From contig JAFAZW010000020.1 in NCBI GenBank assembly GCA_019239415.1, forward strand, positions 1 through 45,396: 45,396 nucleotides of DNA, given 5' to 3'. The stretch is from Alphaproteobacteria bacterium (lineage in GTDB: Bacteria > Pseudomonadota > Alphaproteobacteria > Sphingomonadales > Sphingomonadaceae). Position 1 is the stretch's first letter. Every line of letters starts with the position of its first letter. Of the stretch, positions 193-7,149 are shown one piece after another. The translations under genes and the position numbers were made by a program. Below the pieces are notes generated by a model. That model was not told where the DNA came from. It did no database searches and saw only the letters and a program-made list of their open reading frames with translations.

Positions 193-2697
<2,505 letters not shown>

Positions 2698-2727
2698 GGT
2701 CTCGTCGCGGGCGGAGCCGTGCGAGGT

Positions 2728-2755
2728 CTTGAACCGGTTCGGCCCTCTCCTAAAT
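2728..2755 (+). promoter_or_regulatory. Probable RpoH (sigma-32) promoter of the hsp20 gene
   Basis: CTTG at 2728-2731 is followed 17 bases later by CCTAAAT at 2749-2755. The alphaproteobacterial RpoH consensus is usually given as CTTG, 17-18 bases, then CYTATnT, so six of the seven bases in the downstream box fit. It lies about 100 bp before the small heat-shock gene and points at it, the expected place for a heat-shock promoter. Confidence 0.6.
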
Positions 2756-2858
2756 TCCTCCCGTCGGGCGACTTCGGTGCCCGGCCTGTACCCGCGAGGG
2801 GCTCCGGGCCTCGTGCCGGTCCCCTCGTCCCCATGTTGCTCACAGGAGGACAAGGATC

Positions 2859-3353
2859 ATGAGAAGCTTCGATTTCACCCCCTATCGCCGCTCCACGATC
2901 GGCTTCGACCGATTGTTCGAATTCCTCGAGAATGCAAACCGCGAGCAGGCGGACAATTATCCCCCCTACGACATCGAGAAGCTGAGCGACGACCGCTACC
3001 GGATCACGCTCGCCGTCGCCGGGTTCAGCCCGAACGACATCGACATCACGGCCCGTCAGAACCTGCTGACGATCACCGGCCGCAAGGCGGAGAGCCGCAA
3101 CCGCGACGGCAATTACGTCCACATGGGCATCGCCACCCGCGCGTTCGAGCGTCGCTTCGAGCTCGCCGATTTCGTGCGTGTCGACAATGCCGACATGAAG
3201 GACGGTCTGCTCGCTATCGAGCTGGTGCGCGAGATCCCGGACGCGATGAAGCCGCGCAAGGTCGAGATCAACGGCGGCGAGCGGCGGACCATCGACGCCG
3301 AGAGCGGCCCCAAGGCCGACGTGCCCGCGGAAGGCGAACGCGCCGACGCCTGA
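2859..3353 (+). CDS. Small heat-shock protein, Hsp20/alpha-crystallin family (IbpA-like)
   Basis: This 164-residue holdase chaperone binds unfolding proteins and passes them to DnaK/ClpB. The N-terminus (MRSFDFTPYRRSTIGFDRLF) is the classic IbpA/HspA class A start. The alpha-crystallin domain spans about residues 40-130 and has the motif LAVAGFSPNDIDI and a beta-9-like stretch ending DGLLAIEL. The C-terminal tail is charged and lacks an obvious IXI motif of the exact type, although KVEI is present. The start is fixed by a strong AGGAGG at 2843-2848. An RpoH-like promoter lies upstream and a palindromic repeat directly follows the stop. It stands alone as a monocistronic gene. Confidence 0.95.
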   Translation: MRSFDFTPYRRSTIGFDRLFEFLENANREQADNYPPYDIEKLSDDRYRITLAVAGFSPNDIDITARQNLLTITGRKAESRNRDGNYVHMGIATRAFERRFELADFVRVDNADMKDGLLAIELVREIPDAMKPRKVEINGGERRTIDAESGPKADVPAEGERADA

Positions 3354-3366
3354 TCGGTCCGCAAAG

Positions 3367-3392
3367 TGGGGACAGGTACGTACCTGTCCCCA
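3367..3392. repeat. REP-like palindrome, family A copy 1
   Basis: A perfect 26-bp palindrome with two 13-bp arms (TGGGGACAGGTAC and its complement) starts 13 bp after the hsp20 stop and is followed by five Ts. It shares the GGGGACA-GTAC core with copies at 18781-18818 and 23504-23542. It may double as the hsp20 terminator. Confidence 0.85.
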
Positions 3393-3477
3393 TTTTTGCC
3401 ATTTCTGCCGAGAGACCGCCGCGGTTCGAGCCGATAGATGCCCGGACCTTCGAGAAACCGAAGAAGGCGGCGACACG

Positions 3478-3642
3478 GTGAAACGGCCCAGCAGACTGCG
3501 CCATCCCTTCGCGCTTGTCGCGCAAGGCTTCCTCGCCGCCGCGCTCGTCTTCGCGGCGTTCGATCCGACGCTGGTCGGCTCCGGCTCCGCCGGCGACGAG
3601 GCCCAGGCGAACGCGCTGCTGGCCGAGCTGCTCAACAGCTGA
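3478..3642 (+). CDS. Small single-span membrane protein, tandem paralogue 1 (54 aa)
   Basis: A GTG-started frame of 54 codons has a basic N-terminus (KRPSRLRHP) and one hydrophobic segment, about residues 11-31 (ALVAQGFLAAALVFAAF). A short polar tail containing SAGD and ending in an amphipathic ALLAELL stretch follows. AGGCGG sits six to seven bases before the GTG. It is clearly similar to the peptide encoded at 3826-3978: both share LR, ALV, GFLA, AL.F.A, a Pro, SAGD and a C-terminal EL. That resemblance between neighbours is the main evidence that both are real genes. The function is unknown. The N-in, C-out orientation suggested by the positive N-terminus is inference. Confidence 0.6.
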   Translation: MKRPSRLRHPFALVAQGFLAAALVFAAFDPTLVGSGSAGDEAQANALLAELLNS

Positions 3643-3825
3643 TCGCGCTAAGGGAACGGCCGGGCGCCCGCACTGTCCCCGCGCTTGTCGCAAGGCACCG
3701 TCCGCTTATCTTCCGTTAAGCCTTCGACCGCCATGCCGGTGTCCGGGATCGCGCCGGGCGCGCCGCGGCGGCCGATCACCGAGAGACGCTAGAGGAGGCG
3801 GGCCGCTGCGCCCGACGGTGGGTAT

Positions 3826-3978
3826 ATGTTGACCAAGCTTCGCAGTCCCGTCGCGCTGGTGACCGAGGGTTTCCTCGCCGGCGCGCTGCTCTTCCTCGCC
3901 GCCAATCCGGGTTTCCTTCACCACCGCTCCGCCGGCGACGACCGCGCCGCCGCTCTCGTCCAGGAGCTGATCCGCTAG
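3826..3978 (+). CDS. Small single-span membrane protein, tandem paralogue 2 (50 aa)
   Basis: This ATG-started frame of 50 codons begins MLTKLRSPVALVTEGFLAGA. The hydrophobic stretch covers about residues 9-27, followed by NPGFLHHRSAGDD and a short amphipathic C-terminus, AALVQELIR. By eye, about 20 of 50 positions match the peptide at 3478-3642, including the GFLA and SAGD blocks. The Shine-Dalgarno signal is weak (GGTGGG directly upstream). A good AGAGGAGG at 3791-3798 is too far away to serve this start, and a stop codon at 3790 rules out a longer form. The next gene, pdeM, begins 38 bp downstream on the same strand. Function unknown. Confidence 0.6.
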   Translation: MLTKLRSPVALVTEGFLAGALLFLAANPGFLHHRSAGDDRAAALVQELIR

Positions 3979-4016
3979 GCGCTTGCACCGCGGCGCGGCG
4001 CGCGTATAGGCGGTCC

Positions 4017-4679
4017 ATGGTTCGCTTTACGTTCGCCGGGCAGGAGCTGATGGCGCTGCCGCAGGGCGCGCTGTTCTGGCCGGCGCGCCGCGCGCTCCTG
4101 CTTGCCGACCTCCACCTCGAGAAAGCGAGCTGGTTCGCGCGGCTGGGGCAGATGCTCCCGCCCTACGATTCGATCGCCACGCTGGCGGATCTCACGGCGC
4201 TCGTCGCGGCGACGTCCGCCCGCGAAGTCTGGTGCCTCGGCGACAGTTTCCACGACCGCTTCGGCTGCGAGCGCCTGCCCGAGCGCGCGCGCGCGATGCT
4301 GACCGCGCTCACCGCCGCGACGCGCTGGACCTGGATCGCCGGCAACCACGATGCCGGCCTGCTGGACCATTGCGGCGGCGCGATCGTCGCGGAAACCGAA
4401 GTGGACGGGCTGCTGCTGCGCCACGAGGCCGACCCCGCCGAGCAGCGCCCGGAGCTGTCGGGGCATTTCCACCCCAAGCTGCGCATCACCCAGCGGGGCC
4501 GGCAGGTCTCGCGCCGCTGCTTCGTCGCAACGGAGACCAAGCTGATTCTCCCCGCATTCGGCGCGCTGACCGGCGGCCTGGACGCCGCGCATCCGGAGAT
4601 CGTCCGCGCCGTCGGGCCCGGCGCCGAGGCGCTGGTGCCGGTCGCGGATCGGCTGCTGCGTTTCCCTCTCGCCGCCTAG
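4017..4679 (+). CDS. pdeM: Ligase-associated DNA damage response metallophosphoesterase
   Basis: A 220-residue calcineurin-like phosphoesterase with the metal-binding blocks in order: DLHLEK (about 30), LGDSFHD (about 78), GNHD (about 111) and GHFHPK (about 149). The spacing and the opening TFAGQELMALPQGALFWP match the PdeM family, which normally sits beside an LHR-type DEXH helicase and an ATP-dependent DNA ligase in a bacterial repair cluster. Here neither partner is adjacent. The gene ends head-to-head with msrA, overlapping by four bases. The product is probably a cytoplasmic nuclease or phosphodiesterase used in DNA repair. The function within the cluster is inferred from family context. 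Confidence 0.9.
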   Translation: MVRFTFAGQELMALPQGALFWPARRALLLADLHLEKASWFARLGQMLPPYDSIATLADLTALVAATSAREVWCLGDSFHDRFGCERLPERARAMLTALTAATRWTWIAGNHDAGLLDHCGGAIVAETEVDGLLLRHEADPAEQRPELSGHFHPKLRITQRGRQVSRRCFVATETKLILPAFGALTGGLDAAHPEIVRAVGPGAEALVPVADRLLRFPLAA

Positions 4680-5335
4680 GGCCGCCAGAGGCCGGGAAAG
4701 TTCGCCTTCAGCGCCGCGAGCTTCGGCAGGTCCCAGCGACGGATGTAGGGGCTGTCCGGGTGCTTGCGCTCATAGCCCTGATGATAGTCCTCGGCGGCAT
4801 AGAAGGCGCCGGTCTCGACCTTCGTCACCACCCGCTGCGGAAAAGCACGGGCGGCGTTGAGCTGGGCGATATAGGCGCTCGCCGCCCGCCGCTGCGCCGC
4901 GTCCTGGGGAAAGATGGCGGAGCGGTAGCTCGGGCCGACATCGGGCGTCTGGCGGTTCAACTCGGTCGGGTTGTGCGATGAGAAGAAGACGCGCAGCAGC
5001 TGGCCGTAGCTGACTTGACGCGGGTCGAAGACGATACGCACCGATTCGGCGTGGCCGGTGGTCTCCGTCCCGACCTTCGGATAGGTGGCGTCGGCGCGGC
5101 TGCCGCCGGCATAGCCCGCGGTGACCGCGCGCACCCCCTTCACATGCTCGAACACGCCCTGCATTCCCCAGAAGCAGCCGCCCGCGAAGACGGCGGTCTG
5201 GCTGGCGCCGGCGGCGGGCACGTCGATCTTGGGCGGCGGTGCCGCGGCAGCGCTGGCGGGCGCTGCAGGCATCAGCAACCAGGCGGCACCCGCGAGCGCG
5301 GCGGCGCCGACGGCGGCAGTGGTCAGGATCTTCAT
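4676..5335 (-). CDS. msrA: Peptide-methionine (S)-S-oxide reductase with signal peptide
   Basis: This 219-residue enzyme reduces methionine S-sulfoxide in oxidised proteins. The catalytic motif GGCFWG places the nucleophilic cysteine at about residue 54, and the family blocks VTAGYAGG, GHAE and YHQ follow. The first 30 residues form a signal peptide (hydrophobic AAALAGAAWLLM, then ASAAA), so the protein is probably exported to the periplasm. I place the start at ATG 5335 because this ATG overlaps the pabBC stop as ATGA, typical of translational coupling. A start at 5350 would only add five residues. Co-expression with folate synthesis genes is positional; a functional link is not obvious. Confidence 0.93.
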   Translation of the reverse strand: MKILTTAAVGAAALAGAAWLLMPAAPASAAAAPPPKIDVPAAGASQTAVFAGGCFWGMQGVFEHVKGVRAVTAGYAGGSRADATYPKVGTETTGHAESVRIVFDPRQVSYGQLLRVFFSSHNPTELNRQTPDVGPSYRSAIFPQDAAQRRAASAYIAQLNAARAFPQRVVTKVETGAFYAAEDYHQGYERKHPDSPYIRRWDLPKLAALKANFPGLWRP

Positions 5336-7149
5336 GACGAGGGTCTCCAAAGCTGTGCGCCCACAAGCCCCCTGAGGCTGTTGCCGATCAGGAACCCGTG
5401 CCTCAGATCGTCTTCGCGCAGGTCGGCTTCAAGGGCTCGTCCCTCCTCGAGCAGCCGTTCGCGCAGAATTCCCGGCAGCAGGCCTCGCGCCGACGGCGGC
5501 GTCAGCAGCTTTCGGTCCCGCTCGACGAACACGGTCGTGAAGCTTCCCTCCGTCACGAATCCTGCCGGATCGACGAAAACGACCTCGAAGGAGTCGCCGC
5601 GGGCCTCGTCGTAGAAGCGCCGGTCGCTGGTCTTGTGGCGCAGCCGGAAGTCGGACGGATCCACCGGCAGCGCCGCCAGCTTCACCGTCACGGCCTCGAC
5701 CGGCGCCGGCGGCAGCGGCCGGGTCTCGACCGCCAACGCGCCGCTTCGCGACAGAAGCAGCCGCAGCCGCCGCGGCGCGCGCAAAGCGAAGGTCGCGGCC
5801 TGGAGCTCGTTGCGGGCATGGTGGCGGTCGAAGGTGAAGCCGAGCGCCGCGGCGCTTCGCTTCATCCGCGCGAGATGGCGCTCCAGCTCGGCGATGCCCG
5901 CCTCGGGATCGAAGCGCATCGTCTCGATCAGGTCGAAGCGCCGGTCCGTCTCCACGAAAGCTCCCTTGGCAAGGCATTCCCGCCACTCGTCGGCCGGACG
6001 GCTGTCGGCGACGATGCCGGAGCCCAGGCCGATCCGCGCGCGGCTCTCCCCGTCGCGCAGGACGAGAGTGCGGATCGCGACATTGAACGCGGCTTCCCCG
6101 TCCGGTGCAAGCCGGCCGATGCTGCCGGTGTAGACGCCGCGGGTGCGCCGTTCGAGCCCGTGGAGGATTTCCTGCGCCCGGATCTTGGGCGCACCGGTGA
6201 TCGACCCGCACGGGAAGATCGCTTCGACGACGTCGACCGGGCCCAGCCCCGCGCGCAGCGTGGCGGTAACCGTCGACGTCATCTGCTGGAGCGTGGGATA
6301 GCGCTCCACCTCGAACAGCCGCGGCACCTGGACGCTGCCCCGCGCGGCCACGCGCGACAGGTCGTTCCGCAGCAGGTCGACGATCATCAGGTTCTCGGCG
6401 CGCTGCTTAGGATCGGACCGCAGGGCCTCGGGATCGGCCTCGGGCGGGGCCGTGCCCTTCATCGGCCGCGCGGTGATCCGCCCCGCCTCGATCGTGAAGA
6501 ACAGCTCCGGAGACAAGGAAAGAAGCCAGTGCGAGCCCGTGAACACCACGCCGCCCCACCCCGCCCGCGCACGCGGCCGCAGCGCCGCGTAGAGAGCGAG
6601 CGGATGGCCGGCAATTGCCACGTCTGCCTCGAAGGTGAGATTCGCCTGGTAGACGTCGCCTTCGAGGATGTGCGCCTGGATCGCCGCGACCGCCGAGAGA
6701 TAGGAGTCGCGGTCCATCGCCGCGCGTGGCGCCCCGGCCCAGGCCCCCGCCGGCGCCGGCAGCGCGTCGAAGCCGACTTCCTCGACCCGATCGAACAGGC
6801 CGAACCACAGCAGCGGCGTCTCCGCATCCCGCGGTGCGAGCGGCGCCAGCCTGGGCTCCAGGGCATGGCCCGCTTCGTAGGCGAGAAACCCGGCGGCCTC
6901 CCGGTTCGCCGCGCGCAGCCGCTCCAGCGCCGGCGCGACATCCTCGATCCGGCGCGCTTCGATGATCTCCGCCGGCGCGCGGTAGAGGCGCGCGCCCTGC
7001 CCGCCCCAGCCGTCGAGAAGGACGAATGGCGTGCCGCCTTGCCAGAAGCGGGCAGGGGGTCCATCTCGCCCGGCGTCAGGAGGATTTCCGGTGGTTTCCA
7101 GCGTCTTCGACCTCTTCAAGATCGGCGTGGGCCCGTCCAGCTCCCACAC
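5332..7149 (-). CDS. pabB: Fused aminodeoxychorismate synthase component I / 4-amino-4-deoxychorismate lyase
   Basis: This is a PabB-PabC fusion for p-aminobenzoate synthesis in the folate pathway. The N-terminal two-thirds carries chorismate-binding motifs: SLSPELFF, RPMKGTAPP, DLLRNDLSR, the loop CGSITGAPK and GSGIVADS. The last roughly 200 residues are a class IV PLP lyase with the likely PLP lysine in HKTSDRRFYDEAR and the block TEGSFTTVFV. The glutamine amidotransferase PabA is not present here. The start is uncertain. The longest form begins at GTG 7149, overlaps the sdaA start by 59 bp and has no clear ribosome binding site. TTG 7119 is the alternative; the only nearby ATG (7064) is in another frame. 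Confidence 0.88.
   Translation of the reverse strand: MWELDGPTPILKRSKTLETTGNPPDAGRDGPPARFWQGGTPFVLLDGWGGQGARLYRAPAEIIEARRIEDVAPALERLRAANREAAGFLAYEAGHALEPRLAPLAPRDAETPLLWFGLFDRVEEVGFDALPAPAGAWAGAPRAAMDRDSYLSAVAAIQAHILEGDVYQANLTFEADVAIAGHPLALYAALRPRARAGWGGVVFTGSHWLLSLSPELFFTIEAGRITARPMKGTAPPEADPEALRSDPKQRAENLMIVDLLRNDLSRVAARGSVQVPRLFEVERYPTLQQMTSTVTATLRAGLGPVDVVEAIFPCGSITGAPKIRAQEILHGLERRTRGVYTGSIGRLAPDGEAAFNVAIRTLVLRDGESRARIGLGSGIVADSRPADEWRECLAKGAFVETDRRFDLIETMRFDPEAGIAELERHLARMKRSAAALGFTFDRHHARNELQAATFALRAPRRLRLLLSRSGALAVETRPLPPAPVEAVTVKLAALPVDPSDFRLRHKTSDRRFYDEARGDSFEVVFVDPAGFVTEGSFTTVFVERDRKLLTPPSARGLLPGILRERLLEEGRALEADLREDDLRHGFLIGNSLRGLVGAQLWRPSS

What the first reader, a model, noticed from the sequence alone, without database searches (positions are those of the whole stretch)
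3478..3978. Tandem, divergent copies of a 50-54 residue single-span membrane protein
Two short genes, 3478-3642 and 3826-3978, each encode a basic N-terminus, one hydrophobic helix containing GFLA, and a polar tail with SAGD and an EL-type end. They lie in tandem on the same strand. By eye about 20 of 50 residues match, including a shared ALV..GFLA core. Similarity between neighbours with different GC-rich codons argues for real, duplicated small proteins of unknown role.
Basis: partly seen in the sequence, partly recalled or inferred. Interest (0 to 1): 0.75.

Follow-up and report, generated by a model that had tools for sequence, protein, structure and literature searches.

The report
Duplicated, fast-evolving small membrane-protein gene
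Two neighbouring 50- to 54-residue genes are real, diverged copies of an uncatalogued single-span membrane protein that relatives in the same genus keep beside the same DNA-repair gene, and that resembles a wider sphingomonad family whose job is unknown.

Summary
In detail: window 3478-3642 (GTG start, 54 aa) and 3826-3978 (50 aa) share 24 of 48 aligned residues. The family is real. A profile finds it in 25 of 26 genomes of the window's genus, Allosphingosinicella by named matches, and in all 25 a member lies directly upstream of pdeM. Only the window has two there. Consensus MxxxKKLxNPFALVxQGFxAGAxLF: basic N-terminus, one helix with a GFxxGA motif and a polar Q/E/N, and a fast-changing tail. 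No Pfam, NCBIfam or PHROGs family fits. Other genera of the GTDB family carry a likely distant relative (MxxFLKSDLFRNFAxGFxxGA; 118 of 199 genomes match), usually overlapping the start of an exported msrA. An obligatory MsrA role is unlikely: three near-complete Allosphingosinicella genomes keep the small gene with a single, apparently cytosolic MsrA. The dN/dS test between the two copies is not significant; the family-wide pattern favours coding. Best reading: an N-in/C-out bitopic protein that packs its helix against an unidentified inner-membrane partner. Coding is solid; the mechanism is inferred.

The parts
3478..3642 (+). Small membrane protein copy 1 (GTG start, 54 aa); the extra, upstream copy
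   Evidence: profile E 2.0e-15, but it is a row of that profile; G007, the relative with the closest neighbours, has one copy, whose DNA runs on with copy 2 and pdeM
3826..3978 (+). Small membrane protein copy 2 (ATG, 50 aa); the positional counterpart of the single gene in relatives, 38 nt before pdeM
   Evidence: (profile E 1.8e-16, also a row of it)
3983..4010 (+). Promoter-like element for pdeM (TTGCAC, 16 nt, TATAGG; ATG six bases further on), suggesting a leaderless pdeM transcript
   Evidence: TATA in the last 22 nt before the pdeM ATG in 24 of 25 genomes, CTTG[ACT] in the gap in 21 of 25; the generic sigma-70 scan found none, so the function is inferred
4017..4679 (+). pdeM, ligase-associated DNA damage response endonuclease; conserved downstream neighbour
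   Evidence: TIGR04123 223.3 bits, cut-off 150; synteny
2859..3353 (+). HSP20/IbpA-like small heat shock gene; frequent but not invariable upstream neighbour
   Evidence: (IbpA model 151.7 bits, below its cut-off of 212)
4676..5335 (-). msrA with an export-type N-terminus (ATG at 5335; export judged by eye), convergent with pdeM; in other genera an exported msrA usually follows the wider-family small gene
   Evidence: (TIGR00401 162.7 bits, cut-off 108.1)

Best explanation
The two ORFs are genuine protein-coding genes, a tandem duplicate (seen only in this genome) of a gene that normally stands alone upstream of pdeM. Each makes a bitopic inner-membrane protein. The basic N-terminus stays in the cytoplasm. 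One helix of about 19 residues spans the membrane, with a conserved GFxxGA (small-xxx-small) face next to a polar Q/E/N. The polar tail faces the periplasm and in copy 2 is predicted to end in a short helix. The protein most likely works sideways in the membrane, packing its helix face against a larger integral membrane protein, or against itself, to stabilise or tune it, as CydX-, KdpF- or AcrZ-type small proteins do (that analogy is recalled). Shown: homologues, conservation, synteny, one hydrophobic segment, and conservation concentrated in that segment rather than the tail. Inferred: expression, topology, membrane location, helix packing. Unknown: the partner.
For: Homologues in 25 of 26 genus genomes, all 25 with a member directly upstream of pdeM, 30-148 nt away. 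Invariant P8, L11, G15, F16 and near-invariant G19 (copy 2 numbering) over 30 members, with poorly alignable tails. Two 34-aa members end right after the helix, so the helix is the constant part. In all 30 the segment before the helix has net charge +1 to +5 and in 29 of 30 the part after it is neutral or acidic. AlphaFold from the two window sequences: helix 8-26 (mean pLDDT 90 over residues 11-20) and helix 34-49; mean pLDDT 76.3, pTM 0.38. pS > pN in 350 of 378 pairs. pdeM seems to have its own promoter in the gap, so the small gene is probably not just a pdeM leader.
Against: No partner identified and no homologue of known function. The protein diverges fast: window versus G007 pN is 0.36-0.37 against 0.072 for HSP20 and 0.094 for PdeM, unusual for a subunit held in a stable complex. 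GxxxG-like patterns and polar residues in helices are common, and copy 1 has A instead of G at the second small position. Topology rests on charge counting only, and in the 29 wider-family relatives the same count is less clear (-1 to +4 before the helix). No expression data were available.
Confidence: 0.5

Rival explanations
1. Accessory of periplasmic methionine-sulfoxide repair: the small protein anchors or assists an exported MsrA at the inner membrane.
For: In other genera the likely distant relative lies upstream of msrA on the same strand in 26 of 29 loci, and the first possible MsrA start lies within -12 to +25 nt of its stop in 21 of 26, at -4 in 15 of these. MsrA there has lipoprotein-type or other export-like N-termini (by eye and pattern). 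In the window msrA is the next gene after pdeM.
Against: In the genus only 8 of 26 genomes have an intact close relative of this exported MsrA, with a split match in G023, while 25 of 26 have the small gene. G008, G019 and G025 (99% complete) and G024 (86%) show one MsrA match each, and its N-terminus looks cytosolic. None of the 30 genus or 29 wider-family proteins has a cysteine to carry electrons.
Confidence: 0.15
2. The hydrophobic stretch is a cleaved signal peptide and the product is a short secreted peptide.
For: Basic n-region plus hydrophobic core; some tails hold Ala-x-Ala; in the wider family AxA (19 of 29, shuffled mean 14.1) and PxAxA (12 of 29, shuffled mean 1.8) are enriched.
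Against: In the genus AxA is at chance (13 of 30, shuffled mean 13.3). The tail is the variable part and the hydrophobic part the conserved one, the reverse of an exported peptide. Two members have almost no tail.
Confidence: 0.08
3. A type I toxin (hok/ldr/tisB-like, recalled): small hydrophobic toxins that can occur in tandem under antisense RNA control.
For: Size, hydrophobicity and tandem arrangement; weak scores of single members to two holin families (E 0.032 and 0.073).
Against: One copy at the same place in 24 of the 25 genomes with the family, two in the window. No Rfam antitoxin family among the matches in 2600-5400, and no plasmid match for copy 2. Toxicity and antisense transcription were not tested.
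Confidence: 0.05
4. A leader or upstream ORF whose translation, not product, regulates the next gene.
For: Short overlap with msrA in many wider-family loci; position just before pdeM in the genus.
Against: Residues, not just the frame, are conserved. pdeM is 30-148 nt away with a TATA of its own in 24 of 25 genomes. Copies without pdeM in the fetched stretch exist in G005, G013, G014, G015 and G023.
Confidence: 0.05
5. Chance ORFs in GC-rich DNA.
For: Many spurious ORFs overlap the region; the dN/dS test between the two copies alone is not significant.
Against: Homologues at the same place in 25 genomes, among them four genomes not used to build the profile (E 2.6e-12 to 3.8e-8), and synonymous excess in closer pairs (p = 7.6e-7 and 1.7e-6).
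Confidence: 0.01

Closest known systems
Uncatalogued small protein upstream of exported msrA in other genera of the same GTDB family (alignment A3)
   Same: Size, single hydrophobic segment with GFxxGA, chromosomal neighbourhood (pabB, msrA, pdeM in part of the loci); profile similarity 84% by local hhalign
   Different: Genus members lack the DLxRNF N-terminal signature, lie before pdeM rather than before msrA, and resemble it little outside the helix (global hhalign probability only 29%)
Small bitopic accessory proteins of known complexes (CydX, KdpF, AcrZ; recalled)
   Same: Length of about 30-50 residues, one helix, no enzymatic motif
   Different: No convincing match in Pfam, NCBIfam or PDB chains; no gene for a membrane complex next to it in the window
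YohP of E. coli (27 aa; abstract and outline of PMC12719787)
   Same: Small membrane protein without catalytic activity
   Different: Shorter; no alignment to YohP was attempted; no stress data here

Membership tests
Allosphingosinicella pdeM-upstream small protein family (defined here) | NPFALVxQGFxxGA-type helix matching profile A1 | tested here: met
   Window copies E 1.8e-16 and 2.0e-15, though both are rows of A1; without a profile the two score E 1.6e-7 against each other in the genome. Members outside A1: G002, G008, G010, G016 and the pdeM-side copies of G005 and G013
Allosphingosinicella pdeM-upstream small protein family (defined here) | Lies directly upstream of pdeM | tested here: met
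   25 of 25 genomes with a member, G023's in a disrupted frame; copy 2 in the window is 38 nt away
msrA-linked small protein family of other genera (A3) | GFxxGA helix similar by profile | tested here: met
   Local hhalign score 28.7, reached by 0 of 150 all-core and 1 of 150 helix-block column shuffles; global probability 28.7%. 6 of the 34 places that A3 lists in the genus at E <= 1 are this family, one of them below 0.01; the window's copies are not among them
msrA-linked small protein family of other genera (A3) | KSDLxRNF-type N-terminal signature | tested here: not met
   Genus members have KKLxNPFAL
msrA-linked small protein family of other genera (A3) | Gene directly upstream of msrA | tested here: not met
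   pdeM follows in the window and in 25 of 25 genomes
Type I toxins | Antisense RNA regulator | tested here: inconclusive
   No Rfam antitoxin family among the matches in 2600-5400; an undescribed antisense RNA cannot be excluded
Type I toxins | Toxic on expression | not testable with these tools
   Needs an experiment
Secreted peptide with signal peptidase I site | AxA after the hydrophobic core more often than chance | tested here: not met
   Genus: 13 of 30, shuffled mean 13.3
CydX/KdpF/AcrZ-type accessory proteins | Sequence membership in the named families | tested here: not met
   No family at E 10 in Pfam for the four proteins; NCBIfam best E 0.088; best over 30 members in Pfam E 0.0051, to DUF7940; PDB best E 0.28
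CydX/KdpF/AcrZ-type accessory proteins | Physical association with a membrane complex | not testable with these tools
   Needs crosslinking or co-purification

The most novel reading that the evidence does not exclude
A sphingomonad-wide, uncatalogued small membrane protein belongs to envelope oxidative-damage repair: it is co-translated with exported MsrA in many genera, was separated from it and kept for an MsrA-independent function in Allosphingosinicella, and doubled in the window lineage, where the two helices could form a heterodimer.
Probability: 0.15. Interest if true: 0.6.

Novelty: new member of a known kind. Interest (0 to 1): 0.4.

Why it matters
Small membrane proteins are easily missed by annotation. 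This gives a family with a clear residue signature, fixed synteny within a genus and a likely counterpart overlapping msrA in many related genera, so its function can be tested by deletion. It also shows a small gene that keeps its place throughout a genus while its sequence changes several times faster than its neighbours.

Tried and rejected
Dispersed-repeat reading of the palindrome GGGGACAGGTACGTACCTGTCCCC before copy 1: its half-site occurs at only one other place in the genome, so it looks like a terminator of hsp20 or an operator rather than a repeat family.

Signal-peptide reading: no excess of AxA in the genus. MsrA-partner reading as the leading explanation: dropped. Regulon reading of the TTCA-N6-GTTTA element found upstream of 12 of 28 small genes: a stricter form of the pattern has 8 matches in 10 genomes, five of them upstream of the small gene and three elsewhere, against 2 for the reversed control pattern, so it looks gene-specific rather than a regulon; the window's copies lack it.

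Tree of 30 members: only 50 columns, 15 of 27 inner forks open. It pairs copy 1 with G007 (96/84), whereas the DNA comparison joins copy 2 with G007 through pdeM (75% over 362 nt). The date of the duplication stays unresolved.

Papers: Sphingomonas, small proteins, transmembrane, ribosome profiling: 0 papers; 138 papers hold a term, 10 listed; 1, 3, 4, 1 and 3 papers listed. I saw listings and the starts of abstracts only, except the abstract and outline of PMC12719787. None of these listings named this family; most subscription papers are not held.

Not run: fold search (a single helix gives no meaningful match) and any search of phage or E. coli records. The plasmid search used copy 2 only. 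The weak matches of one or two members (E 0.005 to 0.08) were treated as noise.

Rows dropped: of the 30 wider-family loci, L109 was left out of the 29-row table because it is cut by a contig end and my script read the wrong position in it; L104 was left out of A3 (28 rows) as near-identical to L101. Of 15 lipobox pattern matches I discount two (L112, the active-site Cys; L093, an unlikely position). The two tailless members were left out of the 28-member selection counts, and G023's pdeM-side copy, in a disrupted frame, out of the 30-member set.

Full report
What is there. Window 3478-3642 and 3826-3978 are intact ORFs of 54 (GTG) and 50 (ATG) residues on the + strand, between an HSP20 gene (2859-3353) and pdeM (4017-4679; TIGR04123). 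The proteins match at 24 of 48 positions, E 2e-6 for the pair. In the window's own genome there is no third credible copy: the next match to copy 2 is E 0.72 inside a 709-codon frame.

Is it real. With copy 2 alone as query, 49 of 98 related genomes gave some match at E <= 1, many of them chance; the best outside the window was G007's at 1.5e-7. From these I built a profile of 22 rows (A1), taken from 21 genomes of the genus. It finds the family in 25 of 26 genomes of the genus, and in 21 of 21 near-complete ones. The four genomes not in A1 score 2.6e-12 to 3.8e-8. G004 (87% complete) has no member and no pdeM match either, so its locus may simply be missing from the assembly. In 149 genomes drawn from the GTDB family, 4 match: three of the genus, the window's own included, and G171. 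Two 34-aa second copies (G014, G015) and a pdeM-side copy of G023 in a disrupted frame were seen too.

Synteny. In 25 of 25 genomes with the family a member is the gene directly upstream of pdeM, 30 to 148 nt away, median 40. In 24 of 25 the last 22 nt before the pdeM ATG hold TATA (G019 does not), and in 21 of 25 the gap holds CTTG[ACT]. This reads as a leaderless pdeM promoter, but the generic promoter scan found none in the window. Upstream, HSP20 and a histidine kinase are frequent but not constant. Only the window shows two members at this place. DNA comparison with G007 aligns copy 2 through pdeM (75% over 362 nt) and only 53 nt of copy 1, so copy 2 is in the shared position. The short-protein tree instead groups copy 1 with G007 (96/84). 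These disagree and I leave the timing open.

Selection. Across 28 members, 350 of 378 pairs have pS above pN; the pairs are not independent. Closer pairs are clear: G003/G015 p 7.6e-7, G009/G025 p 1.7e-6. Copy 1 against G007 gives p 0.027, copy 2 against G007 p 0.19. Against G007 the small proteins have pN 0.36-0.37 where HSP20 has 0.072 and PdeM 0.094 (all). So the genes code for protein but change quickly, above all in the tail.

Anatomy. Over 30 members P8, L11, G15 and F16 of copy 2 are invariant and G19 nearly so. The part before the helix carries +1 to +5 in all 30, and the part after it zero or negative charge in 29 of 30; G021 is the exception. AlphaFold gives helices 8-26 and 34-49, mean pLDDT 76.3, pTM 0.38, from two sequences. 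Topology by the positive-inside rule and helix packing through the GFxxGA face are inferences.

Wider relatives. The one out-of-genus hit (G171, E 0.0075) lies between pabB and msrA and belongs to a small-protein set MxxFLKSDLFRNFAxGFxxGA. A profile of 28 of these (A3) matches 118 of 199 genomes and 61 of 96 genera of the GTDB family at E <= 0.01, G019's own member counted, and the weakest may be chance. Of 289 genomes sampled across the class 9 match: three of the same family at 4.8e-8 or better and six others at 2.4e-4 to 0.008, which I take for chance. Homology to the window family is likely but not certain. Local hhalign gives 84.3% and score 28.7, global only 28.7%; 0 of 150 all-core and 1 of 150 helix-block shuffles reach the local score. 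In the genus, A3's best place is G019's own member (E 0.0029), and 6 of 34 places at E <= 1 are the family; the window's copies are not among them.

The msrA link. A tblastn match to MsrA is present in 27 of 30 wider-family loci, to PabB in 5 and to PdeM in 3. In the 29 typed loci MsrA follows on the same strand in 26. Taking the first possible start codon, it begins within -12 to +25 nt of the small stop in 21 of 26, and at -4 in 15 of these. A lipobox is clear in 13 of 26 by my count. This suggested a role in periplasmic methionine repair. It was then tested in the genus. All 26 genomes have some MsrA, but a close relative of the window's exported one is intact only in G000, G007, G021, G011, G002, G010, G016 and G022, with a split match in G023. 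G008, G019, G024 and G025 show a single MsrA whose N-terminus looks cytosolic and still keep the small gene. The second MsrA copies of the other genomes were not all checked for export; G014's best match looks exported. An obligatory MsrA role is therefore unlikely in this genus. No protein of either set has a cysteine.

What it is not. No family in Pfam, NCBIfam, PHROGs or PADLOC matched convincingly, nor any PDB chain; copy 2 has no plasmid match. Chance ORFs, secreted peptides, leaders and toxins fit worse, for the reasons given under the rivals.

Verdict. A real, uncatalogued, genus-wide small membrane protein family with a tandem duplication in the window. Function by lateral helix packing with an unknown partner is the best reading, at about even odds.

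Noticed in passing
window 2764-2865 (+): A probable ROSE RNA thermometer directly before HSP20: 43.4 bits, just under the gathering score of 45, E 1.5e-4.
   Followed up: no
window 3367-3397: Perfect palindrome GGGGACAGGTACGTACCTGTCCCC followed by five T, perhaps the hsp20 terminator; one further half-site in the genome. The terminator scan did not list it.
   Followed up: partly
upstream of small genes in G002, G006, G009, G010, G012, G013, G017, G018, G020, G022, G024, G025: TTCA-N6-GTTTA in 12 of 28 upstream regions against a mononucleotide-shuffled mean of 0.0045, at about 60-150 nt before the start; absent before the window's copies. A stricter form is nearly unique per genome.
   Followed up: partly
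L069 (G013) and L070 (G005): Second family copies lie about 3 kb and 1 kb from what looks like pspF-pspA-pspB loci; in L070 seven ORFs of 79-110 aa with a hydrophobic segment follow (names by eye).
   Followed up: no
L074 (G014) and L075 (G015): 34-aa family members without a tail, each near an ORF of about 150 aa with a hydrophobic N-terminus.
   Followed up: no
loci L083-L112: Wider-family tails carry PxAxA in 12 of 29 (shuffled mean 1.8), and the following MsrA has a clear lipobox in 13 of 26 by my count, so lipoprotein-type MsrA seems common in these genera.
   Followed up: partly
L072 (G023): The pdeM-side copy in G023 sits in a disrupted frame while a second, intact copy lies on another contig; sequencing error or decay cannot be told apart.
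   Followed up: no
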